Part shown: in pieces, positions 49,036-64,000 of the stretch
Layout of the letters: each line of letters begins with the position of its first letter
How positions within the stretch are numbered: position 1 is the stretch's first letter
Assembly (NCBI RefSeq): GCF_000242915.1
Contig: NZ_AFRZ01000001.1
Coordinates: forward strand, 62,001-126,000
DNA length: 64,000 nt
Reading direction: 5' to 3'
Origin: Sulfurimonas gotlandica GD1
GTDB taxonomy: Bacteria > Campylobacterota > Campylobacteria > Campylobacterales > Sulfurimonadaceae
Position numbers and translations under genes: made by a program
The notes under the pieces: generated by a model
What the model was told of the DNA's origin: nothing
What the model saw: the letters and a program-made list of their open reading frames with translations, nothing else
Database searches by the model: none

Positions 49036-50167
49036 TATAGACTTCTATAAACTTAGAGTTTTTGTATTTAAACAGATAGACTTTGTTGTGCAGTTGATCA
49101 TTTTTATAATCTATATCAACACCATCTAAAATATTCTTAGGAAGCTTTTTTATCTCTTGGAGGAACTTTTCTCTTGTAATGGCACCGCCGATATTCTTCA
49201 ATGCCACAACAACTGATTTGGCTGCTAAAAATGCTTCTAAAGAAACAAAACCTAAAGGCTCATCCGGAAAGTACTTCTTCATAAGCTTTTTATACTCTAA
49301 GATAACAGGTTTAGAACTATCATCATAACTTGGAACAACTTGGGAGAAAAATAAATTTTCAGTATTGTAATCTAACTCTCTTATCATCTCATCTGCATCT
49401 CCAAAAGAGATATTACAAAAAAGTGTATCTTTAAAAATAGGATCTTTCTTTGCTGTTTTAATAAACAGAGCATTTGCTTTATACGCTCCAATCATAAAAA
49501 CTGCTTCTGGTTTTGAAGACTTTATCTCATGAAAGGCATGTCTAATGGAGAGAGTGTTCCTTTTATATGTTCCTTCTCCGCAAAGCTTCAATCCTCTCTC
49601 GTTTAGTGAGTGAAGAAGTGAGACAAAGCCCTCTTCTCCATAATCATCATTTTGATAAAAAACAGCAAATTTCGAAAGATCTCTTTTAGTTCGTAAATAC
49701 TCAACTGTGTAGTCAATCTCTTCTTTATAAGAACTCCTAAAATTGACAATATCCACACCGTCATTGTTTCTTAAAAAAGAAGCTCCTGTAAATGGAGCTA
49801 CTAAAGGTATTTCTCCAGCTCTGAGATTAGGTAATATTTTTTTTACTGTTGGAGTACCTACAAAACCAAAAAAAGCAAAAATATTTTTATCAATAAGCTT
49901 TTTAATATTCTCAACAGTCATATCAGGCTCATATTTATCATCATAAACAATGAGTTCAATTTTCACATCGCCTAGTAATTTATTTTGATTAGCATATAAA
50001 AAATAAGAATCGGCTCCACTGTAAACAGAATCACCCAGAGCATGCATAATTCCACTTCTAGGTATTGAAAGACCGAGTTTTAAGGATTTTCCATCAAGCT
50101 CATCATTTTCAATATTTAGGAAAATCAGAACAAAAGCAATTAGTACAACTACTATATATCTAATCAC
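49025..50167 (-). CDS. Periplasmic binding protein of the branched-chain amino acid (Peripla_BP_6) type
   Basis: 380 aa from GTG 50167, which has AAAGGG six bases upstream and gives a normal signal sequence or anchor (IVVVLIAFVLIFL). An ATG 13 codons earlier has no site. The mature part shows the two-lobe Peripla_BP_6 pattern: KLGLSIPRSG near the start, IFAFFGFVGTPTV, AVFYQNDDYGEEG and FVSLEAFLAAKSVV. No transporter genes are adjacent; it is in one operon with a histidine kinase and a regulator, so it is probably the sensory ligand receptor. The ligand is unknown. Formate or another substrate of the adjacent operon is only a guess. Confidence 0.82.
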   Translation of the reverse strand: MIRYIVVVLIAFVLIFLNIENDELDGKSLKLGLSIPRSGIMHALGDSVYSGADSYFLYANQNKLLGDVKIELIVYDDKYEPDMTVENIKKLIDKNIFAFFGFVGTPTVKKILPNLRAGEIPLVAPFTGASFLRNNDGVDIVNFRSSYKEEIDYTVEYLRTKRDLSKFAVFYQNDDYGEEGFVSLLHSLNERGLKLCGEGTYKRNTLSIRHAFHEIKSSKPEAVFMIGAYKANALFIKTAKKDPIFKDTLFCNISFGDADEMIRELDYNTENLFFSQVVPSYDDSSKPVILEYKKLMKKYFPDEPLGFVSLEAFLAAKSVVVALKNIGGAITREKFLQEIKKLPKNILDGVDIDYKNDQLHNKVYLFKYKNSKFIEVYNEN

Positions 50168-50292
50168 AAGAACCCTTTTTATGTTGATTATATCATAAAT
50201 ATACATTCAAAGATAAATTGTCTTACAAATAATCACACTAGGTAAAATACTTTTGACTATTTAAGGACAATATAAGTTTTATGAAGTTAAAC

Positions 50293-50314
50293 TTGGTAAT
50301 ATATTTTTTACCAA
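50293..50314 (+). promoter_or_regulatory. Inverted repeat in the leader of the formate dehydrogenase operon
   Basis: TTGGTAA (50293-50299) and TTACCAA (50308-50314) form a perfect 7-bp repeat around TATATTTT. Its right arm touches the ribosome-binding site AAAAGGA of the ferredoxin gene. It may be an operator or an mRNA hairpin that affects initiation. Confidence 0.45.
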
Positions 50315-50325
50315 AAGGATTTAAG

Positions 50326-52023
50326 ATGCAAGAATTTGTCTACTTTAGCGATAGAGGACTTGATTTTCCACTCCCAGAAAATATACTTGTTACCTCTGAA
50401 TTATCAACTGCTTCAAACAATAATTTCATAGTATCAAATTCTAAAAATGTACATGGTGAAATAATCGCAGATGAGATTGACTTCTATATAAGTAACTCAC
50501 AAGACCCTATCGCTAAAAAAATCAAAAATGTAGAAAAATTATATGAAATAAATGCCATTAGATTTGATATGGCACAAGATATTAAATACACTCAAAAAGT
50601 TTCACAAGAAGTTTTACTTGTATCTACTCAAGAACAAAAAGAAGAGTTTTTAAAATCTATGATCCCTGATGAGTTCAATCTTTTACATGTAACACCTGAA
50701 GTAGTTAAATCTATCTCTGGACATATTGGTAATCTAACAGTAATTGTAAATGACACTTTTAAAGATGCAACTCTTCATGTTTCTCAAATCGTATGGTACG
50801 ACCAAGAAGAGATAGCTACTACACAAAGTGGTGCTTTTGACCCCTTAGAGAGTTCACTAGATGATGTCCTTGCAACTCTACGAAACAATATAAGTAATTA
50901 TGAGTACAAAAAGTTTGTTGTGTATGATCAAAACATTTGTCAATATCATGGAAGAAATGAAAAGACTTGTGGAAAATGTGCAGTTGTTTGTCCTACTGTT
51001 GCTATTGAGAGAGATGATGATATCAAGCATCTACTATTTTCACAAATAGACTGTCACGGCTGTGGCGGCTGTATCTCTGTGTGTCCATCAGGAGCACTAG
51101 ACTACGCTCCGCTAAATAGAGAGAGCATCTACGATATCTCAAGAATATTCAGTGGGCATATTCCTTTAGTCATCCCTCAAAAGATGAATGTTAAAGGTTT
51201 AAATGTAGAGTTAAAAGAAAATGTTTTACCTTTTGCTATTGAAGGTGAGAAGTTCCTTCACGAAGCAACACTGCTAACTATCGCACAAGAGTCAGGCTCA
51301 CAAGTAATCTTCTACTCTGACTTCCTTTCAAAAGGAACTAAAGATGCCATCAGAATCTTAAATGACATCTATCAAAAGAGACATAACCTAGATGCAATTA
51401 TAGTCGCGATGGATGAGAGTGAACTAGTAGATGCTCTAAACAAAGTTAACTTCATAGAAGACTCAAGACACACTATCAACGAACTAAACTCAAGAAAAAG
51501 AGAAGTTTTCGCAAATAGACTTAAAAATATTGTAGGTGAAGAAGACTTAGGTGAAGTTAAAACAGGCGAGCACATTCACTATGCAAAAGTAAACGTCAAT
51601 GAAGCTAACTGTACTCTTTGTCTAGCTTGTGTAGGTGCTTGTAACGTAGATGCTCTTGTGGCAAACATAGATGACAACTCTCTAAGAATAAATCCAAGCA
51701 TCTGTACAGCATGTGGCTTTTGTGAAGTTGTATGTCCGGAGAAAGATTGTTTAACTATAGAAGAAGATGTAATCAAACTAAATCCTACTTGGTTTAAAGA
51801 ACAAGTCTTAGCAACAGACACTCTGTTTGCATGTGTGGAGTGCGGAAAAGAGTTTGCAACTACAAAAGCAATAGAGAAAATCTCTTCCATTATGTCTCCT
51901 ATCTTTGCTCACGATCCAGTAAAAGAGAGAACTCTTTACTGCTGTGAAGATTGTAAGCCTAAGGTTATGATGACAAGTTATATGGAAAATAAAAATCTAT
52001 ACAAATCACCAGGAGATATGTAA
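50326..52023 (+). CDS. Multi-cluster 4Fe-4S ferredoxin-type protein, first gene of the fdh operon
   Basis: 565 aa from ATG 50326, with AAAAGGA upstream; a start 15 codons earlier lies within the leader repeat and has no site. No signal peptide. The N-terminal half (1-200) is of unknown type. A ferredoxin pair follows: CQYHGRNEKTCGKCAVVCP (about 205-223) and CHGCGGCISVCPSGA (about 243-257). A second pair lies at CTLCLACVGACNVDA and CTACGFCEVVCPEKDC (about 426-475). The C-terminus has two CxxC knuckles (CVECGKEF, CCEDC). It is likely a cytoplasmic electron carrier or assembly factor for formate dehydrogenase. Family name not certain. Confidence 0.85.
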   Translation: MQEFVYFSDRGLDFPLPENILVTSELSTASNNNFIVSNSKNVHGEIIADEIDFYISNSQDPIAKKIKNVEKLYEINAIRFDMAQDIKYTQKVSQEVLLVSTQEQKEEFLKSMIPDEFNLLHVTPEVVKSISGHIGNLTVIVNDTFKDATLHVSQIVWYDQEEIATTQSGAFDPLESSLDDVLATLRNNISNYEYKKFVVYDQNICQYHGRNEKTCGKCAVVCPTVAIERDDDIKHLLFSQIDCHGCGGCISVCPSGALDYAPLNRESIYDISRIFSGHIPLVIPQKMNVKGLNVELKENVLPFAIEGEKFLHEATLLTIAQESGSQVIFYSDFLSKGTKDAIRILNDIYQKRHNLDAIIVAMDESELVDALNKVNFIEDSRHTINELNSRKREVFANRLKNIVGEEDLGEVKTGEHIHYAKVNVNEANCTLCLACVGACNVDALVANIDDNSLRINPSICTACGFCEVVCPEKDCLTIEEDVIKLNPTWFKEQVLATDTLFACVECGKEFATTKAIEKISSIMSPIFAHDPVKERTLYCCEDCKPKVMMTSYMENKNLYKSPGDM

Positions 52024-52796
52024 TGAATGAAGAAAAAATGAACAAAGCGAGAGCTTTATACTATGCAATGTTTTCAAGATGTTTTGTTTTTACAACGGAC
52101 ACTAAAAGATACTTTGAGCTGATTGAGTTTATAGATATTTTGAAAGAAAATCCATTAGACAAAAGCTCTGCCGAGGCTTTTGAGAAGATAAGAGCCCTTG
52201 TTAAGTCTGATTCTAACATCACTTTTATGAAAGAGTTTGATGCCATCTTTCACTCACCTGAGACTCAAACTCTCAGAACTACAGCTTCATACTATGATGA
52301 AGATATAGAGAGTGGAAAGAAAAGAATCGAGATGCAAAACTTTCTAGCTAAGACAAAAATCAGAAGAGATGAGAAATCTTACTCTGACTATGAAGACCAT
52401 ATAGGTTTTATCTTTTCTGTAATGAGCGAGCTGTGTGAACTGATCGCAAATGGAGAAGAGCAATATAAAAATACAGCACATTGTATTTTTGAGCAAATCT
52501 TAAATGATTTTGTAGACAAGTTCTCAAAAGAACTTTATGAACATGAAAGCGCAGATATCTTTAAAAATGTAGTTGTCTTACTTAAGTCATTTATCGAGTT
52601 CGAAAGACTCTACTTAGAAGTACAGACTCCAGTATATGAACAAAGTAAAGTTCAATCTAAACCAAAAGGCGAAGAACTCTCTGAAGCAGAAATTGAAAGA
52701 AGAGAGAGAAACAGACTACTGAGACAAAAAGGACCAAAGGAAGCACAAGATGCTTGTTCTATTGACATAGCCTATGATGTAGAGGATGACATTTAG
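52023..52796 (+). CDS. TorD/DmsD-like chaperone for formate dehydrogenase
   Basis: 257 aa, all helical and cytoplasmic. TorD-family pattern: MFSRCFVF near the start, a middle EFDAIFHSP segment, and a SYYDEDIESGKKRIEM region. The C-terminal tail is Lys/Glu-rich (about 210-245). TorD-like chaperones bind the Tat signal of molybdenum-cofactor oxidoreductases and hold them for cofactor loading. The Campylobacter fdh locus has a similar gene upstream of fdhA. Its ATG overlaps the ferredoxin stop by one base. Confidence 0.85.
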   Translation: MNEEKMNKARALYYAMFSRCFVFTTDTKRYFELIEFIDILKENPLDKSSAEAFEKIRALVKSDSNITFMKEFDAIFHSPETQTLRTTASYYDEDIESGKKRIEMQNFLAKTKIRRDEKSYSDYEDHIGFIFSVMSELCELIANGEEQYKNTAHCIFEQILNDFVDKFSKELYEHESADIFKNVVVLLKSFIEFERLYLEVQTPVYEQSKVQSKPKGEELSEAEIERRERNRLLRQKGPKEAQDACSIDIAYDVEDDI

Positions 52797-52806
52797 TCAT
52801 CCTCTA
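52780..52806 (+). promoter_or_regulatory. Strong hairpin across the chaperone stop codon
   Basis: TAGAGGATGAC (52780-52790) and GTCATCCTCTA (52796-52806) are perfectly complementary around ATTTA, and the stop codon TAG lies within. No T run follows. With the next hairpin it may mark an RNA processing or stability site between the accessory genes and fdhA. Confidence 0.6.
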
Positions 52807-52812
52807 TGTGAA

Positions 52813-52847
52813 ACTTAAGTAAGCCAAAGAGTTTGGTTTACTTAAGT
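52813..52847 (+). promoter_or_regulatory. Long hairpin between chaperone and Tat protein genes
   Basis: ACTTAAGTAAGCCAAA (52813-52828) pairs with TTTGGTTTACTTAAGT (52832-52847), with one G-U, around the loop GAG: a 16-bp stem. No T tract follows, so it is not a classical terminator. It sits 43 bases before the small Tat protein gene. Confidence 0.65.
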
Positions 52848-52890
52848 CTCATGATTTTATGGGGCTAATCACAAACAAAAGGAGACAACG

Positions 52891-53094
52891 ATGCAAGAGA
52901 GTAGAAGAAACTTCTTCAAAAGAAGTGCATTAGTTGTTGGAGCTGCTGCTGTCAGTGCCACGGCGTTAGCTGCTAATAAAGATGATGCTATAGAAGCTGA
53001 TTCAAACGGAGTTGTTGTAGGGACATCTACTAAGAAAGAGATTCTTTACAAAAAAAGTCAAGCTTGGGAAGATTTTTACAAACAAGCTTTATAG
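52891..53094 (+). CDS. Small Tat-signal protein of the formate dehydrogenase operon
   Basis: 67 aa. The Tat signal has RRNFFKRS (residues 5-12), a hydrophobic stretch, and an ALA cleavage site near residue 27, leaving a mature part of about 40 residues (DDAIEADSNGVVVG... WEDFYKQAL). Strong AAAAGGAG site. It stands directly before fdhA, as does the homologous small periplasmic protein in Campylobacter. Likely a small subunit or assembly partner of the exported enzyme; its exact role is not known. Confidence 0.85.
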   Translation: MQESRRNFFKRSALVVGAAAVSATALAANKDDAIEADSNGVVVGTSTKKEILYKKSQAWEDFYKQAL

Positions 53095-53110
53095 TAAATA
53101 AGGAGAGAGT

Positions 53111-55945
53111 ATGTTAGTTGACACATATGAAACACTCAAAGCTCAAATCGGTAGAAGGTCATTTATGAAAATGGCTGCTGTCGCTACGGCTGCTAGTGTA
53201 ACTAGTGCATTTGCTAATGATGGTGTAACAAGAGCTGCTACACAAGAGGAAGTTAAAAATCCTTTTCCTGGCTCAGTAAATGTTAAAACTATCTGTACTG
53301 CATGTTCGGTTGGATGCGGTATTATCGCAGAAGTACAAAACGGCGTTTGGGTAAGACAAGAAGTTGCACAAGACCACCCTATTTCATTAGGTGGACACTG
53401 TTGTAAAGGTGCTGATATGATTGATATGGTTAGGTCTGAAGTTAGACTTAAGCATCCAATGGTAAAAGAAGGCGGAAAATGGAAAAGATTAAGTTGGGAC
53501 GATGCACTAGACAGAATCGCGACTAAACTAAAAGCTTCTCATGAAACAGCAGGACCTGACTCAGCAATGTTTTTAGGATCAGCAAAAATGAGCACTGAAC
53601 AGGCATATTATTTTAGAAAATTTGCCGCAATGTATGGAACGAACAATATAGATCACCAAGCTAGAATTTGACATAGTGCAACAGTCGCCGGTGTGGCGAA
53701 TACATGGGGTTATGGCGCTATGACCAATTCACTTGGAGATATCCAAAATGCTAAAGCAATTATAATTTTTGGAGCGAATCCTGCGGTTAATCACCCAGTT
53801 GGATTTCAACATTTTCTAAAAGCTAAGGAACAAAACAATGCAAAAATAATTGTTGTCGATCCAGTTTTTACTAAAACAGCTGCAAAAGCTGACCATTACT
53901 GTCGAATAAGACCGGGTACAGATATACCATTTATGTATGGAATGCTGCATCTAATCTTCAAAAACAACTGGCATGATGAGAAATTCATCAAAGACAGAGT
54001 TTACGGTATGGAAGATATTATGGAAGAAGCTAAAAAGTGGCATCCTAAAAAAGTTGAGGATGTAACAGGTGTAAGTGCTGATCAACTTATTCAAATTACA
54101 ACACTATATGCTAGATCTAATCCTGGTACTTTAATCTGGGCTATGGGTTTAACTCAGCACTCAGTGGGTAGTTCTAATACTAGACTTGCTCCTATCTTAC
54201 AACTGGCTCTTGGAAACATGGGTGTTGAAGGTGGTGGAACTAATATTCTTAGAGGTCACGATAATGTTCAAGGTGCTACAGACATGTGTTGTTTATCACA
54301 TACACTGCCTGGTTACTATGGATTAAGTAGTGGTTCATGGAAATACTTCGCAAAATCTTGGGGTGTTGACTATGAATGGTTAGCTAAAAAAAGATTTAAG
54401 AATGAAGAATGGATGGGCAAAAAAGGATTTACACTTTCTCGTTGGTGGGCTGGTGTACTAGATGGTAAAGACGGTAATGATAAGATTCATAACGCAGGTA
54501 CTAATCTAAAAAATCTTTTTGTAATGGGTAATGGTATTACTTCAATTGCTCAACAAGCTAAGGTAAAAGAAGGTCTGGACAACCTAGATATGATTGTTCT
54601 TTGTGATCCTTTTGTTAATGAAGCAGCAATTTTAACTGATAAGCAAGATGATGTATTTATTTTACCGGCTGCTACTCAGTTTGAGACTTCTGGATCTGTA
54701 ACTGCAACTAATAGATCAGTTCAGTGGAGATCAAAAGTAGTTGAACCGATGTATGAGTCAAAAACTGACCACGACATTATGTTCGAACTGGCAAAAAGAC
54801 TCGGTTTTTACGATGAGTATACTGCCGGAATGAAAATTAAAGAGAATAAAAAAGATTTTACATGGCCTGAAGATGCTACTGATGAAATTGCAAGAATCAT
54901 TAAAACTATTGGTTTAACTGGTTGGACTGCAAAAAGAATCAAAAAGCATACTGAGAATTGGCATATGTTTGATCAAATCTCTGGACGTGGATACGGTGAG
55001 ATGAAAGGTGAATATTATGGTTTACCTTGGCCAGTATGGACAGAGACACACGGTGGAAGTCCGTTACTATACAACATCAACAGAAGTGTTGCTGAGGGCG
55101 GTATGGGATTTAGAAACAGATTTGGGCTAGAGCATGAAGGGCATGATTTATTATCAGGCAAAGGTTCTGCACCTAAAGATTCTGCTAATAAAGACGGTTA
55201 CCCAGAGATTACTGCAGAAAATATTGAAAAAGTTCTTGGCATTACGCTAAGTGCTGATGAGAAGAGCAGAATCGGTAAAAACTGGAAAGTTGATACTTCT
55301 AATATTATTGCTGAGAAATGTATGCAACGCGGTATAGCTCCTTATGGAAATGCTAAAGCGAGAGCTAAAGTTTGGACATTCCCTGACCAGATTCCAATGC
55401 ACAGAGAGCCTTTACACTCTCCAAGACAAGACTTGGTAGAAAAATATCCTTCTTATGAGGATAAAAAAGACCATTATAGAGTTGATACTAAATATATTTC
55501 TAAACAGAATGAACAAGATTGGTCGAAAGATTTCCCTATCAACCTTGTAACAGGAAGACTTGTAAATATGAATGGTGCAGGTATGGAAAATAGAGCTTCT
55601 AAATATTTAGCAGCGCTTACTCCTGAGATGTTCTGTAGTATTAACCCTAATTTAGCAGGTAAGTATGGAATCAGAGATGGTTCTATGATGTGGATTCATT
55701 CACCTGAAGGTACTAAAATTAAAGTTAAAGCAAAATATTCTTATTCAGTATCTGAAGACAGAATTTTTATGCCTTTTCACTTTGCCGGTCATTTCCAAGG
55801 TGAAGATTTATCTCATAAGTATCCAAAAGGAACTAAACCTTACGCTGTAGGAGAGAGTGCTAATACTGTTACAAACTACGGTTATGACATTATCACTCAG
55901 ATTCCTGAGACTAAAGGCGGATTATGCCGCATAGAATACGCGTAA
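53111..55945 (+). CDS. fdhA: Formate dehydrogenase catalytic subunit, selenoprotein (UGA at 53669-53671)
   Basis: 944 aa with Sec at residue 187. The Tat signal (R15-R16 in GRRSFMK, cleavage near AFA) exports it. One 4Fe-4S cluster is bound by C62-x2-C65-x3-C69 and C97/C98, and the bis-molybdopterin domains follow. The active site reads HQARI-Sec-HSATV, which matches the Sec position of E. coli FdhN. The ORF continues in the same frame right after the UGA for 757 codons, so it is recoding and not a frameshift or nonsense mutation. It oxidises formate to CO2 in the periplasm with Mo or W. AAGGAG lies upstream; fdhB follows. Confidence 0.97.
53669..53701 (+). promoter_or_regulatory. SECIS element and Sec UGA codon of fdhA
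   Basis: UGA at 53669-53671 is followed, after 13 bases, by the stem UCGCC (53685-53689), loop GGUGU (53690-53694) and GGCGA (53695-53699). The loop starts 18 bases after the UGA, as I recall for E. coli fdhF, whose loop is GGUCU. The GU in the loop is the SelB contact in known elements. Confidence 0.8.
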
Positions 55946-55955
55946 GGAGTTGGTT

Positions 55956-56564
55956 ATGAGTGAAAATGCAAGATTAAAATTTTATTGTGATGAGCATAGA
56001 TGTATTTCATGTGATGGTTGTTCGGTAGCTTGTGCGGAGGCGCATGAGTTACCGGCTAACATCAACAGAAGAAAAGTAATTACTATGAATGAAGGCATTC
56101 AAGGTTTAGAATACTCTCTATCTATTGCTTGTATGCACTGTACAGATGCTCCTTGTGAGCAAGTTTGTCCTACTGATTGTTTCTATATCAGAGAGGACGG
56201 TATCGTTTTACACGACAAAGAAAAATGTATTGGTTGTGCTTATTGTCTGTACGCTTGTCCTTTTGGTGCTCCTCAGTTTCCACTAGATGGTGCTTTTGGA
56301 GTAAAAGGTGTTATGGATAAATGTACCATGTGTGCTGGTGGACCAGAAGAGACTAACTCACATAAAGAAAGAGAACTATACGGGCAAAATAGAATCGCAG
56401 AAGGTAAAGTACCAGTGTGTGCTGCTATGTGTTCTACTAAAGCATTACTTGTTGGTGATTCACAAGAAATTTCTTCTATATATAGAGAAAGAGTATTGTC
56501 AGTTGGCCATGGTGTTAAAACACAACCTTATGGATGGTCAACAGCATATGGTTCTAAAATATAG
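55956..56564 (+). CDS. fdhB: Formate dehydrogenase iron-sulfur subunit
   Basis: 202 aa from ATG 55956 with AAGGAG upstream. Four cysteine groups for 4Fe-4S clusters: CDEHRCISCDGCSVAC, ACMHCTDAPCEQVC, CIGCAYCLYACP and CTMC with CAAMC near the C-terminus. It moves electrons from FdhA to the cytochrome b subunit. It lacks a C-terminal membrane helix (the FdhN beta subunit has one), like other Campylobacterota FdhB. It starts 10 bases after the fdhA stop and ends 9 bases before fdhC. Confidence 0.96.
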   Translation: MSENARLKFYCDEHRCISCDGCSVACAEAHELPANINRRKVITMNEGIQGLEYSLSIACMHCTDAPCEQVCPTDCFYIREDGIVLHDKEKCIGCAYCLYACPFGAPQFPLDGAFGVKGVMDKCTMCAGGPEETNSHKERELYGQNRIAEGKVPVCAAMCSTKALLVGDSQEISSIYRERVLSVGHGVKTQPYGWSTAYGSKI

Positions 56565-56573
56565 GACATTATT

Positions 56574-57470
56574 ATGAAAAGTAAATATATAATAATCGCT
56601 CTTATCGCACTCTCTTCACTAGCCTTTGGTGCTAGTGAAAGTGTAGTATGGAGCGACAACCTAGTTGATAATATCCTTGGTTACGATAAAAAAGGTTCAT
56701 TACATTTAGGACAATATTTTACTATTTTACAAAGTACATATTTCAAACCACTATTTTTAGGTGTTTTATTTGGAGTACCCGCAGTGTTTCTTTTACACTA
56801 CATGGTAATCGGTCCAATGATCTTCTCTCATGATAGAAAGAAGATCTATGTATTTACTTTGTTTCACAGAATAGTTCATGCCATTGCAGGTGTATCATTT
56901 ATCTTACTTATTCCAACTGGTCTAATTATGATGTTTGCTAGCACTTTTGGCGGTGGAGAATTTGTAAGAGTATGTAAAGAGATTCATGCGATCTCGACAC
57001 TTCTTTTTATAGTAAGTATTGTACCTATGTTTTTTATGTGGCTTAGATGGATGTTTCTCCACTTCGATGACATTAAATGGTTAATGATTGTAGGCGGTTA
57101 TCTAAATAAAGATAAGAAACCAGTTCCTGCAGGCAGATTTAATGCCGGTCAAAAAACTTGGTATTGGTTAGCTACTCTTGGTGGGTTTATAATGATAGGA
57201 ACTGGTGCGGCTATGTATTTTCAAGACTTTAGACTTGATATGCTAGACACATACCAGATCTCTCAAATTGACTTTTTAAGAGCAAGTGCTATTGTTCATA
57301 ATGCCTTAGGATTAGCTGTTGTAGCTCTTTTCTTTGTTCATATTTACATGGCAGTATTTGCGATTAAAGGTGCTATCCACAGTATGATAGATGGTCACAA
57401 AGAAGAAGAAGAAGTAGAAATTCTTCATAGTTCTTATTATAGAGAGCTAAAAGAAAAAGGCGAAGTTTAA
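56574..57470 (+). CDS. fdhC: Formate dehydrogenase cytochrome b subunit
   Basis: 298 aa with a signal-like N-terminal helix (ending FGASES), then four membrane helices (about 60-80, 98-122, 140-165, 200-225 and 245-265 are candidate spans). Candidate haem ligands include His in FHRIVHAIAG (about 98-107), EIHAIST, IVHNALG and FFVHIYM. It passes electrons from FdhB to menaquinone. Last structural gene of the operon; a hairpin with a T run follows. Confidence 0.94.
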   Translation: MKSKYIIIALIALSSLAFGASESVVWSDNLVDNILGYDKKGSLHLGQYFTILQSTYFKPLFLGVLFGVPAVFLLHYMVIGPMIFSHDRKKIYVFTLFHRIVHAIAGVSFILLIPTGLIMMFASTFGGGEFVRVCKEIHAISTLLFIVSIVPMFFMWLRWMFLHFDDIKWLMIVGGYLNKDKKPVPAGRFNAGQKTWYWLATLGGFIMIGTGAAMYFQDFRLDMLDTYQISQIDFLRASAIVHNALGLAVVALFFVHIYMAVFAIKGAIHSMIDGHKEEEEVEILHSSYYRELKEKGEV

Positions 57471-57489
57471 CAGATTAATCGGTTCATTC

Positions 57490-57519
57490 CTCCTTTTTTG
57501 GCGGAGTGTTCTTTTTTTT
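57490..57519 (+). terminator. Terminator after fdhC
   Basis: CTCC (57490-57493) pairs with GGAG (57503-57506), and a run of eight T follows at 57512-57519. The stem is short, so termination may be partial, with read-through to fdhD. Confidence 0.45.
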
Positions 57520-57562
57520 ACACTATGCAAATATTACATATTTAAATAGTTGTATTTTTAAA

Positions 57563-57579
57563 TATGCTAAAATAGCATA
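57563..57579. promoter_or_regulatory. Palindrome upstream of fdhD
   Basis: TATGCTA-AAA-TAGCATA is a perfect 7-bp inverted repeat, 14 bases before the fdhD ATG, and it contains a -10-like TAAAAT. It looks like an operator for a dimeric regulator; the ModE-like protein at 58744 is a candidate. Confidence 0.45.
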
Positions 57580-57592
57580 ATAAGGAATAACA

Positions 57593-58381
57593 ATGCCAAA
57601 CACTAAATATTTAAAGAAAATCATTATCGACAGAGTTGATGGTGATGAGATTACAGAAGTAGAAGATGTGACTATTGAAGAAGCAAGACTAAATGTTTAC
57701 CTCAATGGTGAAAAAATCATATCAATGATGTGTATTCCCAAGGATCAAAAAGCTCATGCAATTGGCTTTTTGATGAGTGAGAATGTAATCTCTGATATTA
57801 CAGACGTTGAATATATAGAAGTTAGCGAAGATGGTTTAAAAGTTGATATCAAAGCAGCAGTTGATACAGACTCATTACAGAACCTATATAAAGAAAAAAC
57901 CCTTGTAAGCGGTTGTGGTGGAGGAATTACTGGTAATATTGCCGGAAGCCTGGAAATACCATTTAACCAAACAAGTTTTGTGATTAGCCCTAAGACTATC
58001 AGCGATGAAGTTAAACTATTTTACGCTGATAGTGAACTATATAAACTGACAGGTTGTGTTCATAAAGCGATGCTTTATTTAGAAGATAAAACAACTGTAA
58101 CTGCAGAAGATATCGGAAGACATAATGCTATCGATAAAGTAGTAGGTAAATGTAAGATAGATTCTCTGGACACAACAAAAGCAGTCTTATTTGTTAGTGG
58201 AAGACTTAGTTCTGAAATGGTTGTCAAAGCTGTTATGCATAAGATTCCAATTGTAGTTTCAAGAACTGCTCCAACATATCTTGGAGTACAAACGGCAAAT
58301 ACGCATGGAATAACTCTGATAGGTTTTGCCAGAGGTAGAAAAATGAATATCTATACTCATAGTGGAAGAATTCATGGCTAA
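57593..58381 (+). CDS. fdhD: Formate dehydrogenase accessory sulfurtransferase
   Basis: 262 aa. FdhD carries sulfur from a cysteine desulfurase to the molybdenum cofactor for formate dehydrogenase. The conserved first cysteine is C108 in VSGCGGG; the second Cys of the usual CxxC loop is replaced by Gly. Other family motifs are GFLMSENVI, TGCVHKAML, EDIGRHNAIDKVVG and SGRLSSEMVVKA. AAGGA lies before the ATG. Its stop overlaps the next gene by 8 bases, starting a run of coupled genes to moeA. Confidence 0.95.
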   Translation: MPNTKYLKKIIIDRVDGDEITEVEDVTIEEARLNVYLNGEKIISMMCIPKDQKAHAIGFLMSENVISDITDVEYIEVSEDGLKVDIKAAVDTDSLQNLYKEKTLVSGCGGGITGNIAGSLEIPFNQTSFVISPKTISDEVKLFYADSELYKLTGCVHKAMLYLEDKTTVTAEDIGRHNAIDKVVGKCKIDSLDTTKAVLFVSGRLSSEMVVKAVMHKIPIVVSRTAPTYLGVQTANTHGITLIGFARGRKMNIYTHSGRIHG

Positions 58382-58760
58382 TCAAGCTGAAATTATAAAG
58401 CAATATCTAAATGAGAACGGAAAAATAAACTGTTTAGATGGCTTTAAATTGGCTAGAAAGTTAAATATAGATCCCGGCGAAATAGCTGAGCTTACTAAAA
58501 AATACGGTATCAAAATCGACAATTGCGAGCTTGGTGTTTTTGGTGACAATGACTTTGGTGAAAGAAGAGATGATATATATGAAAAGCTCTCTTTAAAAGC
58601 TGATAATGAAAAAAAGCTAGAGTGTAGTGTTGCTTGGGAAGTAGCACAGGAATTTTCTTTGAAAAAAGTTGGTTCTACCACTAAAAAAAGTGACATTGAA
58701 GTTATATATTGTCAGCTTGGATGTTTTAGAAGAAGGATTCACCATGGTAGTAAAAGTTAA
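58374..58760 (+). CDS. Two-repeat cysteine protein between fdhD and the ModE-like gene
   Basis: 128 aa from ATG 58374, overlapping fdhD by 8 bases. Two similar units are seen. Unit 1 (about 16-57) runs K-I-N-C20 ... F-K-L-A-R ... C51-E-L-G-V-F. Unit 2 (about 80-119) runs K-L-E-C84 ... W-E-V-A-Q ... C113-Q-L-G-C117-F. Each has a Cys, a helix like a helix-turn-helix, then C-x-L-G-x-F. No signal peptide. It may bind metal or act with the ModE-like protein (17-base overlap). Family not recognised. Confidence 0.75.
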   Translation: MANQAEIIKQYLNENGKINCLDGFKLARKLNIDPGEIAELTKKYGIKIDNCELGVFGDNDFGERRDDIYEKLSLKADNEKKLECSVAWEVAQEFSLKKVGSTTKKSDIEVIYCQLGCFRRRIHHGSKS

Positions 58761-59118
58761 AACTTGGATAGAAGACGACAGTGAGCACCTTATTTTTGGT
58801 GGGGGAAAAACTCAAGTCTTGGAACTGATAGATGAAACAGGTTCAATCTCAGAAGCTTCAAAAAAAGTGGGGATGAACTATAAAAAAGCTTGGACACATA
58901 TTAAAATACTCCAAGAGTATATAGAAGATGATCTTGTTGTTGTAAACAAGGGAAGAGAATCTGGCGGGACAACACTTACACCAAAAGCTAAAGAGCTAAT
59001 CTTAAAATATAAGCAACTTGAAGCAGAAGTAAAAGCCTATTCAACCAAAAGATTCCAAGAGATCTTTATAGCTGATGGCAATGTTATTCACTGTACTAAG
59101 GATAAGCAAGATGTATAA
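58744..59118 (+). CDS. ModE-like winged-helix regulator
   Basis: 124 aa from ATG 58744. ModE N-terminal DNA-binding pattern: HLIFGGGKTQVLELIDETGSISEASKKVGMNYKKAWTHI (about 14-52 region, split here only for description) and a wing with SGGTTLTPKAKELI. It lacks the C-terminal molybdate-binding (TOBE/Mop) domains of E. coli ModE, as do short Campylobacterota ModE proteins. Likely regulates the molybdate or tungstate uptake and cofactor genes around it. It overlaps the previous gene by 17 bases and the next by 8. Confidence 0.85.
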   Translation: MVVKVKTWIEDDSEHLIFGGGKTQVLELIDETGSISEASKKVGMNYKKAWTHIKILQEYIEDDLVVVNKGRESGGTTLTPKAKELILKYKQLEAEVKAYSTKRFQEIFIADGNVIHCTKDKQDV

Positions 59119-60091
59119 ATTGAACTATTTAAATTATGCAGATGCTAAAGATGTATCAATAGAAAAAGAGCTTAGTATTGATCCTTTGAGTACAAATGTT
59201 GAGTATGAAAAGTTAAGCTCTGATTTAACTTCAAAATTTGATTTTTCGCATCTGCATACATTCTCTTTTTCAAAAGAAGGGTTTCTAGGTTTAATGTTGG
59301 AATTAAAAGAAGATATCGCTGTAAGTCTTGGTGAGAGTGAAGCATTGATCCAAGCTGCCAAACTATATGAAACACTGGGTTTCAAAGTGACTTACATAGA
59401 TATAAAGCATAATGGAGAGATAGACTATAAAGATGTAGAGTCAATAAAAGAAGAGTACTTTTTTGTATCTCCATATATTATAGATACCTTTGTTAGAGTT
59501 GATTTGAAAAAAATCAAAGAATTATTTTGTGGAACTGTTATTTCAAATATATCGGCAACTCTAGATGCTTCACTATGTGATATTGCTTATTTTGATGTTT
59601 ATAAACTAAGTGGATATTGTACGCATTCAGTGCTTCTGCATGACGGTCTGTTTGAAGAGCAAAACATTGCAAGTATTGACACACTTGGAGTAAAACTAAT
59701 CTCAGATGCTCTTAACAAAAAAAGAGAAAACATAACTTGCAAAAAAGAGTTTATAGAAGCTTTAAAAGAGAGTTTGAAAGATGACTTTTTCTTTTTTGTA
59801 GGTGCAGATGCAACACTTGATAATGTAGTTCACTTTGGGCTTAAAGGTATAAAAGCCAGACAAGTTATTAGAAATTTAAGTCTATCAAATATTTTTGTAA
59901 CAAATGGAGAAGGATGTTCTTTGGGCCTTTCACGCCCCTCTAGAATTATTCAGGAAATGGGTTATACAGAGCTGCAAAGTAGACAAGCACTATCTCTATC
60001 TTTTTTTAAAGATTTAGATAGTGAAGAGATACAATTTGTGGCTTCTAAGATAGCAAAATCATACAGACAGATAAAGGCTTTACATGGATAA
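59111..60091 (+). CDS. Divergent NifS/IscS-like cysteine desulfurase
   Basis: 326 aa from ATG 59111 (overlap of 8 bases with the ModE-like gene). It is a class V aminotransferase fold, poorly conserved. The PLP Lys appears to be K165 in DVYKLSGYC, aligned with the HK of IscS. The catalytic Cys is likely C269 in GEGCSLGLSRPS, aligned with the IscS active loop, and the ending has the IscS-type helix (FVASKIAKSYRQI). It may give sulfur to FdhD or selenium to SelD. It is shorter than IscS (about 400 aa). Confidence 0.75.
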   Translation: MYKLNYLNYADAKDVSIEKELSIDPLSTNVEYEKLSSDLTSKFDFSHLHTFSFSKEGFLGLMLELKEDIAVSLGESEALIQAAKLYETLGFKVTYIDIKHNGEIDYKDVESIKEEYFFVSPYIIDTFVRVDLKKIKELFCGTVISNISATLDASLCDIAYFDVYKLSGYCTHSVLLHDGLFEEQNIASIDTLGVKLISDALNKKRENITCKKEFIEALKESLKDDFFFFVGADATLDNVVHFGLKGIKARQVIRNLSLSNIFVTNGEGCSLGLSRPSRIIQEMGYTELQSRQALSLSFFKDLDSEEIQFVASKIAKSYRQIKALHG

Positions 60092-61313
60092 GTATTTAGA
60101 TTTTAAAGATGCTGTTGCTTCATCACTTGGGATTGCTGAAGTAACAACTCTTGAAGAAACGGTTCATATCGGTGACTCTATAGGAAGAGTTTTGGCACAA
60201 AAAGTCATCTGTGTTAAGAACCTTCCATCTTTTAATAACTCTGCAATGGATGGCTTTGCAATAAAAGCTACAGATGCAGGTAAAAGATTAAAAGTTTTAA
60301 AGACTATTTTAGCTGGTGATAGTGTTGAAGCGACTCTTAGTGCTGGAGAGTGCTACAAGATAATGACTGGTGCTAAAGTGCCAAGTGATGCTGATACTAT
60401 CATCCCTATAGAAGATGTTTTAGATTATGAAAACAGTGAAGTCACAATCAAAGAAAATGTCGTAAAAAACTCATGTCTAAGATTTAAGGGTGAAGAGAAA
60501 GCTCTTGGTGATGTTTTATTTGATAAAGGTGAAGTTATCACATCCGGTATGGTAGCTCTCTTAGCTTCTCAGGGCATTACAATGCTCTCACTATATAAGA
60601 AGCTAAACATTGCCGTTGTATCGACTGGAAATGAGCTAAAAGAGCCATGGGAGATAGCAAGTGATGATGAGATTTATAACTGCAACTCTTATGCGATTAT
60701 CTCGCTTTTAAAAGAAAAAGGCTTTAACGCGACATATACAGGTGTCGTGCCTGATTCTCTTGAGAAATCAGTTGAGTTTGTTAATGGCTTAAAGAGTTAC
60801 GATCTGATTATAACAACAGGTGGCATCTCTATGGGAGATGCTGACTACATGGCAGAGGCATTTGAGCGCAATGGCCTTGAGATAGCTTTTCATGGAGTTA
60901 ACATCAAACCTGGACGTCCTATCATGATGGGAAAAATGGATAATACTTTCGTAATGTGTCTTCCTGGAAATCCATTAACAGCTATGGTAAACATGCATCT
61001 ATTTGCCTTTCCTGTTTTAAACAAGTTACAAGGTTCTTTGAAAGTTTTTCATGATGTAGATATTGCTACAAATGTTAAAGCCTTTAAAACAAAATCTGGT
61101 CGCGTTAATGTTGTTCTAGGGAGTTATGCAGATGGAAAATATTGCGTAACCCAAAATAATAAATATGGCTCTGGGATGATTAGTGTGATAGATGCTAGTA
61201 ATTGTATTCTTGTTACAGATGAATCATGTGAGAGTATATCAGAAGAAGATAGCGTCAAGATTATTAAGTTTAATTGCTTATATAGCAAAGATCAAATCGA
61301 TCTATTTAACTAA
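60084..61313 (+). CDS. moeA: Molybdopterin molybdotransferase
   Basis: 409 aa with the MoeA domain order: an N-terminal segment with NLPSFNNSAMDGFAIK, a domain with MTGAKVPSDADTIIPIED, the MoaB/Mog-like nucleotide-binding domain (VVSTGNELKEP, then TTGGISMGDADY), and a C-terminal beta domain. It inserts molybdate or tungstate into adenylated molybdopterin. It overlaps the desulfurase gene by 8 bases. The binding-protein gene follows 10 bases downstream. Confidence 0.95.
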   Translation: MDKYLDFKDAVASSLGIAEVTTLEETVHIGDSIGRVLAQKVICVKNLPSFNNSAMDGFAIKATDAGKRLKVLKTILAGDSVEATLSAGECYKIMTGAKVPSDADTIIPIEDVLDYENSEVTIKENVVKNSCLRFKGEEKALGDVLFDKGEVITSGMVALLASQGITMLSLYKKLNIAVVSTGNELKEPWEIASDDEIYNCNSYAIISLLKEKGFNATYTGVVPDSLEKSVEFVNGLKSYDLIITTGGISMGDADYMAEAFERNGLEIAFHGVNIKPGRPIMMGKMDNTFVMCLPGNPLTAMVNMHLFAFPVLNKLQGSLKVFHDVDIATNVKAFKTKSGRVNVVLGSYADGKYCVTQNNKYGSGMISVIDASNCILVTDESCESISEEDSVKIIKFNCLYSKDQIDLFN

Positions 61314-61323
61314 GGAGAAAAAG

Positions 61324-62283
61324 ATGAATAAAAAAATATTACTAAGTTTAGGGTTTAGTGCCCTACTCGCTTCTAGTTTATTAGCAAAAGAGAGTGTATC
61401 AGTTTTTCATGCAGGATCTTTAGCAGTTCCATTTGCTGAGATTGAAAAAGCATTTGAATCAAAGTATCCTCAATACGATGTACAAAGAGAAGCAAGTGGC
61501 TCTATTGCAGCAGCTAGAAAAATTTCTGAAATTGGCAGAGCGGCAGATGTTATGGCAAGTGCTGATTATAAGGTAATTGACAATCTGCTAATTCCAAAAG
61601 ATGCTAAGTTTAATGTGCAGTTTGCAACAAATGAGATGGCAATTGCTTATACATCAAATGCAAAATATGCAAAAGAGATAAATGCACAAAACTGGCCGGA
61701 GATTTTTTTAAGAGATGGGGTTAAGGTCGGTCATTCAAATCCTAATTTAGACCCTTGTGGATATAGAACGATGCTAGTTACTAAGTTGGCAGAAAAGCAT
61801 TATAAGTCTCCAGGGTTATTTGACAAACTATTTGGTTATGGAGAGTCATACAAAGTCGGTGACGAAAAAAAGAGCAAAATCATAGTAAGACCAAAAGAGA
61901 CTGATTTATTAGGTTTAATGGAAGCTAATGCTTATGATTATCTCTATATTTATAAATCAGTAGCACAGCAACATGGTCTGAAATACATAGAGTTGCCTAA
62001 AGAAGTCTCTTTAGTTGATAATGAGTTTAAAAATTTTTACAAAACTGTAAGCTTTAAAATCAGTGGCAAAAAACCTGGATTGTTTGTAACTAAATACGGA
62101 GGTGCTATGGTTTATGGCATAACCGTTGTAGAAAATAATAAGTCTCCTAAAAATAAAGATGGTGCAATTAAATTTGTCAACTTTGTACTTTCAGATGAGG
62201 GAAAAAAGATAATGGCCAGTAATGGTCAAGGTACATTTTCTTCACCAACAATTACAGGAGATGCTTCCATAATAGGAAAGTAG
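61324..62283 (+). CDS. Tungstate/molybdate ABC transporter binding protein (WtpA-like)
   Basis: 319 aa from ATG 61324 with AAGGAG upstream. A signal peptide (ending LLA, about residue 21) precedes a type-II periplasmic binding fold: SVFHAGSLAVPFAEIEKAF, EASGSIAAARKISE, RAADVMASADY, GHSNPNLDPCGYR. This is the WtpA/ModA-type oxyanion-binding layout with Ser and Asp near the N-terminus. It is closer in pattern to WtpA (tungstate and molybdate) than to ModA. It is followed by an ATPase gene, but no permease gene is adjacent. Confidence 0.85.
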   Translation: MNKKILLSLGFSALLASSLLAKESVSVFHAGSLAVPFAEIEKAFESKYPQYDVQREASGSIAAARKISEIGRAADVMASADYKVIDNLLIPKDAKFNVQFATNEMAIAYTSNAKYAKEINAQNWPEIFLRDGVKVGHSNPNLDPCGYRTMLVTKLAEKHYKSPGLFDKLFGYGESYKVGDEKKSKIIVRPKETDLLGLMEANAYDYLYIYKSVAQQHGLKYIELPKEVSLVDNEFKNFYKTVSFKISGKKPGLFVTKYGGAMVYGITVVENNKSPKNKDGAIKFVNFVLSDEGKKIMASNGQGTFSSPTITGDASIIGK

Positions 62284-62290
62284 CTAAACA

Positions 62291-63277
62291 ATGGACTATT
62301 TAAAAATAAAAAACTTATCAAGTAAAACAAATGATTTTTCGCTTGATAAAATAACTTTTGATATACAAAAAAATGAATATTTTGTACTTCTTGGGCAAAG
62401 TGGAAGTGGAAAGACTATGCTTCTCGAAACCATTGCAGGACTCAATCAATGTGAAGGAGAAATATTTTACAAAGGAGAGGACATCTCTCTTTTAGCAACT
62501 GAAAAGAGAGATATCGGCTTTGTATATCAAGACTTTGCACTATTTCCAAACTTAAATGTAGAAGAGAATATTAGATTTTCATCTAAGTATAAAAAAGTAG
62601 TAGATGCAGATACACTCTTTGAAGATATTGTAGAATTTTTAAAGTTAGATAGTCTACTAGATCGCGATACTAAAGACTTAAGTGGTGGAGAAAAACAGCG
62701 TGTGGCAATAGCTAGAGCAATATTTTCCAGACCAAAAATATTACTTTTGGATGAACCACTTAGTGCTATTGATCCAACATTTAGAAACTCTATTATGAAG
62801 AGTTTAAAAGATATTCATAGAAGATATGATGTTACAACAATCCATGTAACTCATAACTTTAGGGAAGCATCGTATCTGGCTGATAAGATAGCAATAATTA
62901 TGGATGGAAAGATTCAGCAGGTTGGTAAAGCCGAAGATGTTTTGAATCACCCTATAAACATAGAAGTAGCAAGGTTTTTAGGATTTAAAAATATTTTTCC
63001 GGCAACTATGCTTGGATTTAGTTCAAGTTCAAAAGTTTTTTCTGTTGATCCAAATGTCATCAAGGTATCAAAAAATGGAACAATGGAAGCTGACTATATT
63101 TTAGAGGGAGTAGTTGAAGAGTGTATGGGGATAGTAGATCACTATAAACTTTTTGTAAAAGTTAAACAACATCAGTTTTTTATTAAAATCTTAAAGAGGG
63201 ATTATGAAGGGTGCTATGCAGATAGGACCAATATAATCCAAATTGGGTTTGATAAAAAAGACATAAGTTTTATATAA
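62291..63277 (+). CDS. ABC transporter ATP-binding protein (molybdate/tungstate type)
   Basis: 328 aa. Walker A is GQSGSGKT (about 35-42), Q-loop in VYQDFALFP, signature LSGGEKQRVAIARA, Walker B ILLLDEPLS, H-loop in VTHNFREA. A C-terminal region (about 240-328) has beta-strand repeats of the TOBE type. It has the ModC/WtpC/PotA arrangement. It begins 7 bases after the binding protein stop. The integral permease (WtpB/ModB) normally encoded between them is absent here. Confidence 0.88.
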   Translation: MDYLKIKNLSSKTNDFSLDKITFDIQKNEYFVLLGQSGSGKTMLLETIAGLNQCEGEIFYKGEDISLLATEKRDIGFVYQDFALFPNLNVEENIRFSSKYKKVVDADTLFEDIVEFLKLDSLLDRDTKDLSGGEKQRVAIARAIFSRPKILLLDEPLSAIDPTFRNSIMKSLKDIHRRYDVTTIHVTHNFREASYLADKIAIIMDGKIQQVGKAEDVLNHPINIEVARFLGFKNIFPATMLGFSSSSKVFSVDPNVIKVSKNGTMEADYILEGVVEECMGIVDHYKLFVKVKQHQFFIKILKRDYEGCYADRTNIIQIGFDKKDISFI

Positions 63278-63291
63278 AAAAAGGAAGAAAA

Positions 63292-64000
63292 ATGAAGAAA
63301 AAATCAACTCAGATAAGCCTCTTAGTGAGTGCTTTAATAATATCAACAAGTCTTTATAGTGCAGATGAAATATCAAAGCGCACATTGAAAACAAACTATC
63401 AAGAAGTTTATAATGAAAAACCTGGTTCTGTTGAAAACTTCAGAGACATGTTTTTAGATGGTAAGTTTTACGGACGCCTGCGTTCTAATACTTTTTACTA
63501 TGCTTGGGAGAAAGAAACTGCAACACAAGACTCTCATTTAATCACTGCTCTTGGTGGCTCAGTTGTATATAAAAGTGCAACATATTCTAACTTTGATTTC
63601 ACTGCTGGTCTATACTATACACAGGCATTTTTTGATGATAACAGCGACCCTGTTAACCTCTTAAAAGCTGGGAAAGATGTTCTAAGCAGATTTGACAATA
63701 CTAACACCGGAAGCAAATCAATGGGCGTTCTTGGTCAAGCTTACATTAGCTACAAAGGTATACCTAAAACAGAATTGCTAGTGGGTCGTCAGCTAGTTGA
63801 GACTTTTTATACTAAATCAAATGATACAAAAATGATTCCAAATACATTTGATGGTATAGTGATTGAAACAAAAATAATTCCAGATACTACTGTAAAACTA
63901 GGATATCTAGCAGAGCAGAAACTTCGTGACCATACCGAATCACACTCTGCTCTAATGTATGGAGATAGTAATTCAACTTCTTCAAACAATCCTGCATGGA
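63292..64000 (+). CDS. OprD-like outer-membrane porin, N-terminal part (runs off the window)
   Basis: The frame opens at ATG 63292 with AAGGAAG upstream and stays open to the end of the window (236 codons). A signal peptide (to LYSA) is followed by a region with DGKFYGRLRSNTFYYAW, alternating beta strands and SNFDFTAGLYYTQAF, typical of OprD-family barrels of Campylobacterota. It may carry substrate across the outer membrane for the neighbouring uptake genes. The 3' end is missing. Confidence 0.75.
   Translation, partial: MKKKSTQISLLVSALIISTSLYSADEISKRTLKTNYQEVYNEKPGSVENFRDMFLDGKFYGRLRSNTFYYAWEKETATQDSHLITALGGSVVYKSATYSNFDFTAGLYYTQAFFDDNSDPVNLLKAGKDVLSRFDNTNTGSKSMGVLGQAYISYKGIPKTELLVGRQLVETFYTKSNDTKMIPNTFDGIVIETKIIPDTTVKLGYLAEQKLRDHTESHSALMYGDSNSTSSNNPAW

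What the first reader, a model, noticed from the sequence alone, without database searches (positions are those of the whole stretch)
58374..58760. Unassigned two-repeat cysteine protein fused into the fdhD-modE-moeA gene run
Two units share K-[IL]-x-C, a helix [FW]-x-[LV]-A, and C-x-L-G-x-F. The gene overlaps fdhD and the ModE-like gene at both ends, so it is translated with them. The repeat and cysteines suggest binding of a metal or persulfide, perhaps in Mo/W sensing or sulfur delivery to the cofactor.
Basis: partly seen in the sequence, partly recalled or inferred. Interest (0 to 1): 0.6.

Follow-up and report, generated by a model that had tools for sequence, protein, structure and literature searches.

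The report
Split cysteine-repeat half of ModE regulator
The gene encodes two copies of a small, unnamed, cysteine-bearing helical domain that in many related bacteria is the front half of a ModE-like regulator beside the formate dehydrogenase genes, and it is a good candidate for the part that senses or serves the tungsten or molybdenum cofactor.

Summary
The ORF is real: 128 aa, 58374-58760 (+), overlapping fdhD by 8 nt and a short ModE-like gene by 17 nt, under purifying selection. It holds two diverged copies of one ~57-aa unit (profile comparison P 2e-15). Four cysteines are invariant in 61 of 61 aligned sequences. No curated family or PDB sequence matches. New: in Campylobacter, Sulfurospirillum, Sulfurovum and Nautiliaceae the same two units are the N-terminal half of a ModE-type protein without a TOBE/Mop metal domain; the window's clade has them as a separate gene. 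One- and two-unit stand-alone forms occur in a deltaproteobacterial group. Before fdhD lies a palindrome, TATGC-N7-GCATA, exact in 40 of 78 two-unit+ModE loci and 0 of 27 other fdhD loci; it also precedes FDH-operon and tungstate-uptake genes. Best reading: cysteine-based effector half of an FDH/tungsten-linked ModE regulator. Main rival: FDH-maturation (sulfur-relay) factor; the published loss of FDH activity in a C. jejuni modE mutant fits both. Metal or persulfide binding is untested.

The parts
58374..58760 (+). two-unit cysteine-repeat gene (128 aa), the separate counterpart of the N-terminal half of FDH-linked ModE-type proteins
58383..58544 (+). unit 1 (residues 4-57), KINC ... CELGVFG; invariant Cys20 (58431-58433) and Cys51 (58524-58526)
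58569..58727 (+). unit 2 (residues 66-118), KLEC ... CQLGCF; invariant Cys84 (58623-58625) and Cys113 (58710-58712); Cys117 nearly invariant
57593..58381 (+). fdhD, FDH accessory sulfurtransferase; carries SGCG, with a single cysteine at that motif
58744..59118 (+). short ModE-like HTH gene (124 aa), no TOBE/Mop domain; homologous to the C-terminal half of the fused relatives
59111..60091 (+). diverged NifS-like cysteine desulfurase homologue; K164 and C268 (putative PLP lysine and catalytic-loop cysteine, assigned by eye) kept in 14 of 14
60084..61313 (+). moeA (molybdopterin molybdotransferase)
61324..62283 (+). wtpA, tungstate-binding protein
62291..63277 (+). wtpC-like ABC transporter ATPase
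57563..57579 (.). candidate operator, perfect palindrome TATGCTAAAATAGCATA, upstream of fdhD
57524..57540 (.). second candidate operator copy, TATGCAAATATTACATA (one core mismatch)
53111..55945 (+). fdhA, with in-frame TGA (53669-53671) read as selenocysteine by context

Best explanation
The gene is the separate counterpart of the N-terminal half of an FDH-linked ModE-type regulator. It is made of two helix-strand-helix-helix-strand units, each with an invariant cysteine pair. In 25 of 41 genes read it is covalently joined in front of the ModE-type HTH half, and those proteins have no TOBE/Mop domain. Proposed working: the two overlapping genes give a two-protein regulator. The ModE-like protein binds TATGC-N7-GCATA palindromes before fdhD, the FDH operon and tungstate-uptake genes. 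The cysteine pairs bind a ligand that reports W/Mo-cofactor or sulfur supply (a metal, a cluster or a persulfide) and change DNA binding. Shown here by sequence: the repeat, the cysteine invariance, the fused and separate forms, the missing TOBE, the conserved neighbourhood, the palindrome. Inferred: protein-protein contact, what binds the cysteines, which protein binds the palindrome, and the direction of control.
For: Fusion: 25 of 41 two-unit genes in 40 loci are fused to a ModE-type half; TIGR00637 hits, below cut-off, in the C-terminal half of 4 of 4 fused proteins. No TOBE in 8 of 8 fused proteins scanned (4, 4), while the second, ordinary ModE of the same genome, beside modABC, has it. 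Cysteines invariant. fdhD directly upstream in 36 of 41. Palindrome: as scripted, exact in 38 of 76 two-unit+ModE loci and 2 of 29 others (p 3e-5); the 2 are two-unit+ModE loci cut by the contig end, so 40 of 78 against 0 of 27 (p 3e-7; loci share ancestry). Permuted half-sites hit at most 1 of 76. In 119 loci, 81 exact sites: before fdhD 51, a TorD/NarJ-like first gene of the FDH operon 15, tungstate-binding proteins 9 (5 WtpA-like, 4 TupA), NifS-like 2, other or none 4 (15 and 4 TupA assigned by eye, 2 TupA and 3 TorD/NarJ-like checked). Control: three genomes without the domain hold 13 exact sites, none at FDH genes. Literature: the C. jejuni protein represses Mo and W transport genes although it is said to lack a metal-binding domain (PMC7011364, passages, citing Taveirne 2009).
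Against: The two units also occur without a ModE HTH gene next to fdhD (L037, L052, L063) or elsewhere (L033, L051, L064, second copy of L032), and as stand-alone one- and two-unit proteins in a deltaproteobacterial group in mixed contexts, so the unit's basic function need not be regulation. The exact palindrome is missing before fdhD in half of the two-unit+ModE loci, including the C. jejuni group; the C. jejuni genome of L114 has one exact site, inside a gene with no mod or tup gene in the 2.2 kb read. The loci sampled surround the FDH genes, so part of the site count near FDH genes is by construction. In one of five two-unit genomes placed (G225) the only intergenic site lies before a porin gene. 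A ModE-like HTH gene without two-unit exists at L228. TIGR00637 scores are below its curated cut-off (71.9 against 98.5). Nothing shows ligand binding.
Confidence: 0.5

Rival explanations
1. FDH maturation factor: the cysteines pass sulfur (persulfide), or hold cofactor, between a cysteine desulfurase (here the NifS-like neighbour) and FdhD, which sulfurates the W/Mo cofactor of FDH. Fusion to ModE would then couple maturation to regulation.
For: Deletion of modE (the fused protein) in C. jejuni abolishes FDH activity, complementation restores near wild-type activity, and the authors infer functions in FDH biogenesis beyond repression (PMC11237541, passages). fdhD - two-unit - NifS-like without ModE in L037, L052, L063. 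One-unit genes lie directly before fdhD in two deltaproteobacterial genomes. FdhD motif: SGCG in 34 of 37 FdhDs beside a two-unit gene, but a double cysteine ([ST]GCC) in 18 of 20 FdhDs from 18 genomes without it, as if a thiol had moved to another protein.
Against: 69 of 192 FdhD-bearing Campylobacterota genomes lack the domain and 21 of 144 domain-bearing ones lack FdhD. No NifS-like gene was found near any of the 25 fused forms. The FdhD motif follows FDH lineage, so shared descent may explain it. SGCC FdhDs beside a two-unit gene exist (L037, L052, L063, L105, L136, L152). No match to TusA, rhodanese or IscU families was found.
Confidence: 0.25
2. Extra DNA- or RNA-binding units: tandem HTH-like domains that extend the operator specificity of the ModE HTH, with structural cysteines only.
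For: Predicted unit is three helices and two short strands; weak, sub-cut-off HTH hits for three of eight stand-alone members; nearest solved folds are the ribosomal L11 RNA-binding domain and homeodomains, all weak (Z at most 5.9).
Against: Over 103 units only two Cys, one Gly and one Phe are invariant; a DNA-reading helix would hardly be so free, though it may vary with the operator. Foldseek finds nothing at E 1 or below.
Confidence: 0.15
3. Plain thiol/redox switch (disulfide formation) reporting oxygen or redox state to the FDH operon, without metal or sulfur chemistry.
For: Two cysteines per unit, one after each strand of the model; hosts are mostly anaerobic or microaerobic by general knowledge.
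Against: Nothing specific; does not explain the sites before tungstate-uptake genes.
Confidence: 0.1

Closest known systems
ModE (E. coli type molybdate-responsive regulator)
   Same: LysR-like HTH of the ModE domain; control of Mo/W uptake reported for the C. jejuni relative
   Different: No TOBE/Mop domain; a two-unit cysteine region stands at the other (N-terminal) end, and here on a separate protein; candidate operator TATGC-N7-GCATA differs from the ModE consensus printed in PMC2700814 (passages)
C. jejuni ModE-like protein Cj1507c
   Same: C. jejuni locus L114 carries the two units in one 266-aa ORF with a ModE-type half, overlapping the end of fdhD
   Different: There one polypeptide, here two overlapping genes; the passages seen do not describe the N-terminal half as a repeat or domain. 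That L114's gene is Cj1507c is inferred from its neighbours; its HTH half matches Pfam HTH_1 only weakly (E 0.024)
FdhD, FDH accessory sulfurtransferase
   Same: Neighbour and possible partner
   Different: A separate, adjacent gene; no relation claimed
Ribosomal L11 C-terminal domain / homeodomain-like three-helix folds
   Same: Weak overall helix arrangement (Z at most 5.9 over 49 residues, rmsd 2.4)
   Different: No sequence match; a common arrangement

Membership tests
ModE (canonical) | ModE-type HTH domain (TIGR00637) | tested here: inconclusive
   Not in the finding's own protein. Overlapping neighbour 58744-59118: 71.9 bits, E 3.5e-20, below curated cut-off 98.5; four fused relatives 63.8-73.6 bits
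ModE (canonical) | C-terminal TOBE/Mop molybdate-binding domains | tested here: not met
   None in the window gene pair or in 8 of 8 fused relatives; positive control: own genome's second ModE has TOBE, E 1.9e-24
ModE (canonical) | binding to the E. coli type ModE site | tested here: inconclusive
   A recalled E. coli-like pattern gave 7 three-mismatch hits in the window (mean 2.6 in shuffles, 2 of 100 reach 7), none between 44246 and 64000; another palindrome is there instead
known metal- or Fe-S-binding domain | match to a curated family | tested here: not met
   No match over cut-off in Pfam or NCBIfam for this protein, for 8 stand-alone relatives in Pfam or 7 in NCBIfam
sulfurtransferase families (TusA, rhodanese, IscU) | family match | tested here: not met
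   No such match at E up to 1 for this protein, nor for stand-alone relatives
winged-helix / HTH superfamily | three-helix core with recognition helix and wing | tested here: inconclusive
   AF2 unit model pLDDT 87.8, H4-14 E20-22 H23-33 H35-43 E48-50; fold matches weak
metal- or persulfide-binding protein | bound ligand on the cysteines | not testable with these tools
   needs purified protein

The most novel reading that the evidence does not exclude
The cysteine unit is a new small domain, present alone, doubled, or joined to ModE in at least two bacterial phyla, that senses or handles the W/Mo cofactor by thiol chemistry. In Campylobacterota it has taken the place of the Mop domain of ModE and governs an FDH/tungsten regulon through TATGC-N7-GCATA, which would explain how the C. 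jejuni ModE responds to metals without a metal domain and why its loss abolishes FDH activity.
Probability: 0.35. Interest if true: 0.75.

Novelty: new variant of a known kind. Interest (0 to 1): 0.6.

Why it matters
Two published points about the C. jejuni ModE are unexplained: it is said to have no metal-binding domain yet represses both Mo and W transport genes, and its deletion abolishes formate dehydrogenase activity. The fused protein has an unnamed two-unit cysteine half in front of the HTH half. The window and its clade carry the two halves as separate genes, which allows each function to be removed on its own. A candidate operator gives a direct binding test. The same cysteine unit in many deltaproteobacterial genomes, one or two per protein, is an unannotated family.

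Tried and rejected
Rejected: chance ORF (purifying selection; relatives in 144 of 397 phylum genomes); antisense reading (the reverse strand of the exact interval holds stops; a 104-aa antisense ORF at 58382-58696 was not pursued); known-family match; RNA element (no Rfam hit over the gathering score, 50000-64000); plasmid-borne spread (one hit at E 5, none). Fold search gave no confident match; absence of a family from those lists is not evidence against it.

Weaker than hoped: in the deltaproteobacterial group the link to Mo genes is modest. MoeA/FdhE, MoaE and MobA-like neighbours occur in few loci and no neighbourhood control was run. By my count nearly half of the roughly 150 places listed have E above 1e-6 or stops in the matched frame (one-unit genes matched past their end, by my reading of a few); all are counted in the 137 genomes as the tool gives them.

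Choices made by me: the 40 Campylobacterota loci and 40 deltaproteobacterial loci were picked for spread from the hit lists; the 20 domain-free FdhDs come from 18 of the 69 FdhD-only genomes. Rows dropped before counts: duplicates and rows under 100 letters; FdhDs of identical sequence, bit score under 150 or under 250 bases of upstream window. One search's 81 sites include loci of the same genomes fetched twice; its 23 'other/none' were read by eye as TorD/NarJ-like 15, TupA 4, unrelated or none 4. Background: an exact site lies before 9 of 400 other ORFs, some of which may overlap FDH genes.

Sites genome-wide: in five two-unit genomes (G000, G134, G209, G324, G225) 22 exact places: 8 intergenic or 5' of a gene by my reading, 7 of them at fdhD (4), FDH operons (2) or an aldehyde ferredoxin oxidoreductase (1), and 1 before a porin gene (G225); 14 inside genes, one of these near the start of NifS-like. 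One of the 7 (L275) falls in the script's longest ORF and was re-read as upstream of a second FDH-type operon. In three genomes without the domain (G328, G071, G030) 13 places: 10 inside ORFs, 3 intergenic beside one repeated ORF (rRNA-like to my eye), none at FDH genes; G254 and G366 have none.

They turned the two outliers into members of the two-unit+ModE class and added the control above; L112's second half has no Pfam match, so its ModE nature is by eye. I left the odds as they were.

Full report
Observation. The ORF at 58374-58760 (+) is as described. It overlaps fdhD by 8 nt and a 124-aa ModE-like ORF (58744-59118) by 17 nt. The run continues with a diverged NifS-like gene (59111-60091), moeA, wtpA and a wtpC-like gene, with short overlaps up to moeA. 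Upstream lie a ferredoxin-type protein, a TorD-like chaperone and fdhA, fdhB, fdhC. fdhA holds an in-frame TGA in the context HQARI-U-HSATVAG, so the enzyme is most likely a selenoprotein. The internal repeat is real: 0 of 2000 shuffles reach the score, and the two halves match as profiles with P 2e-15. The gene is under purifying selection, and its own genome has one copy.

Family. No curated family covers it: the best Pfam and NCBIfam hits are far below cut-off, and the PDB gives no significant sequence match with the protein or its profile. Relatives are common in the phylum: 144 of 397 Campylobacterota genomes at E 0.001 with the profile (143 at E 0.01 with the single protein). C20, C51, C84 and C113 are kept in 42 of 42 aligned sequences and 61 of 61 (partly the same genomes); over 103 separate units only C, C, G and F are invariant.

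Fused and separate forms. In 40 loci with 41 such genes, 25 are the N-terminal half of a 235-270 aa protein whose C-terminal half is ModE-like, and 16 are separate. Fused proteins come from Campylobacter (including a C. jejuni), Sulfurospirillum, Sulfurovum, Nautiliaceae and a Desulfurellaceae bacterium, L112, whose second half has no Pfam match. In a tree of 111 rows, 53 of the 54 separate Campylobacterota forms make one clade, SH-aLRT 96, with the window, five Sulfurimonadaceae/Sulfurovaceae MAGs and the Arcobacteraceae; L056 lies apart among fused forms; with the outgroup L074 the label changes 3 times (few columns, many forks unresolved). So the window's gene is either a detached half of an FDH-linked ModE-type protein or the unfused state of one clade; direction is not proven. 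The fused proteins lack TOBE in 8 of 8 scanned, while the same genome's second ModE, beside modABC, has it.

Neighbourhood. fdhD lies directly upstream, from 77 nt overlap to 52 nt gap, in 36 of 41. The five exceptions are L044 (FDH genes but no fdhD found), L064 (contig end), L033 and L051 (beside a HAD-type phosphatase by eye) and a second copy in L032. Downstream of the 16 separate genes: ModE-like in 8, NifS-like directly in 5 (three of them with fdhD upstream), neither in 3. Over the phylum the domain and FdhD co-occur: both 123, domain only 21, FdhD only 69, neither 184 of 397 (genomes share ancestry, so the p-value is not a fair probability). Among 37 FdhDs beside a two-unit gene (window included) 34 read SGCG and 3 SGCC; of 20 FdhDs from 18 genomes without the domain, 18 read [ST]GCC and 2 SGCG. 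This may reflect FDH lineages rather than function.

Wider family. A genome scan (165 stretches, 122 confirmed, best 80 kept) found the same two-unit protein in a genome deposited as 'Deltaproteobacteria bacterium' (L074). In that phylum's sample 137 of 297 genomes match at E 0.001, many weakly. Of 40 loci read, 23 are two-unit and 17 one-unit proteins; every unit has both cysteines, and C-x-L-G-x-F ends the protein, give or take two residues, in 39 of 40. Contexts vary: one-unit genes directly before fdhD (L213, L216) or between FdhE-like and MoeA genes (L212), two-unit genes beside MoaE (L187) or near a MobA-like gene (L198), and one-unit genes just before a radical SAM protein and a large BcrAD-type activase (L206 by profile; L207, L210, L215, L223, L224 by similarity and eye).

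Structure. AF2 gives a fair model of the whole protein (pLDDT 80.9, pTM 0.63) and a good one of a single unit with 103 rows (pLDDT 87.8, core above 90, pTM 0.74): helix, short strand, helix, helix, short strand. The first cysteine follows the first strand and the second follows the last strand. Fold searches give only common three-helix arrangements.

Operator candidate. A perfect palindrome TATGCTAAAATAGCATA lies at 57563-57579 before fdhD, with a one-mismatch copy at 57524-57540. Non-redundant by FdhD sequence, the exact core TATGC-N7-GCATA occurs near the fdhD start (220 nt upstream to 90 nt inside) in 38 of 76 two-unit+ModE loci, 1 of 8 two-unit loci without ModE, 0 of 1 with ModE only and 1 of 20 with neither. 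The two outliers, L146 and L125, do carry two-unit and ModE, cut by the contig end, so the count is 40 of 78 against 0 of 27. Permuted half-sites reach at most 1 of 76. The site also lies before TorD/NarJ-like first genes of FDH operons and tungstate-binding protein genes (TupA in L096 and L091, chaperones in L061, L060 and L043 checked), and in one genome before an aldehyde ferredoxin oxidoreductase gene, a tungsten-enzyme family by general knowledge. In five two-unit genomes 7 of 8 intergenic sites are at such genes; in three genomes without the domain 0 of 13 sites are. It is absent before fdhD in the C. jejuni group. That the ModE-like protein binds it is inferred from co-distribution.

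Literature. I saw passages of PMC11237541: deletion of cj1507c (modE) in C. jejuni abolished FDH activity, complementation restored near wild-type activity, and the authors infer functions in FDH biogenesis beyond repression. I saw passages of PMC7011364: citing Taveirne 2009, the C. jejuni ModE represses Mo and W transport genes, lacks a metal-binding domain and has a protein-protein binding site instead. Taveirne 2009 is not held; it may describe the N-terminal region. In the listings I saw no paper on the two-unit domain or the palindrome; the library is open-licence only and most listed papers were not opened.

Mechanism. The fusion, the missing TOBE, the sites before tungstate-uptake genes and the published repression make a regulatory effector role the best single reading (0.5). 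The ModE-free operons, the one-unit genes before fdhD and the C. jejuni FDH phenotype keep a maturation or sulfur role well alive (0.25); both could be true of one protein. What the cysteines bind is unknown.

Verdict. A real, conserved, unannotated domain with a clear regulatory link and testable chemistry; a new variant of ModE-type regulation rather than a wholly new system on present evidence.

Noticed in passing
window 53669-53671: In-frame TGA in fdhA (HQARI-U-HSATVAG): the formate dehydrogenase is most likely a selenoprotein.
   Followed up: partly
window 59111-60091: Diverged NifS-like protein, also next to fdhD/two-unit genes in Arcobacteraceae-type loci; K164 and C268 (NGEGCSLG) kept in 14 of 14. 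It may be an FDH-dedicated cysteine desulfurase.
   Followed up: partly
L073:6243-7022 (own genome, outside the window): A second, ordinary ModE with TOBE domain beside modABC; the genome thus has two ModE-type proteins.
   Followed up: yes
L206, L207, L210, L215, L223, L224: One-unit 57-69 aa genes directly before a radical SAM protein, followed in five of them by a ~1390-aa BcrAD/DUF2229 activase-like protein, in deltaproteobacterial genomes; in L223 the contig ends before that gene.
   Followed up: partly
FdhD of Campylobacterota: FdhD cysteine motif splits into SGCG and [ST]GCC types that follow the presence of the two-unit gene with few exceptions.
   Followed up: partly
   Followed up: partly
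window 52780-52806: Perfect 11-nt inverted repeat with 5-nt loop spanning the end of the TorD-like gene.
   Followed up: no
L033:8007-8417, L051:7788-8195: A third type of two-unit gene, next to a HAD-type phosphatase by eye and without FDH markers nearby.
   Followed up: no
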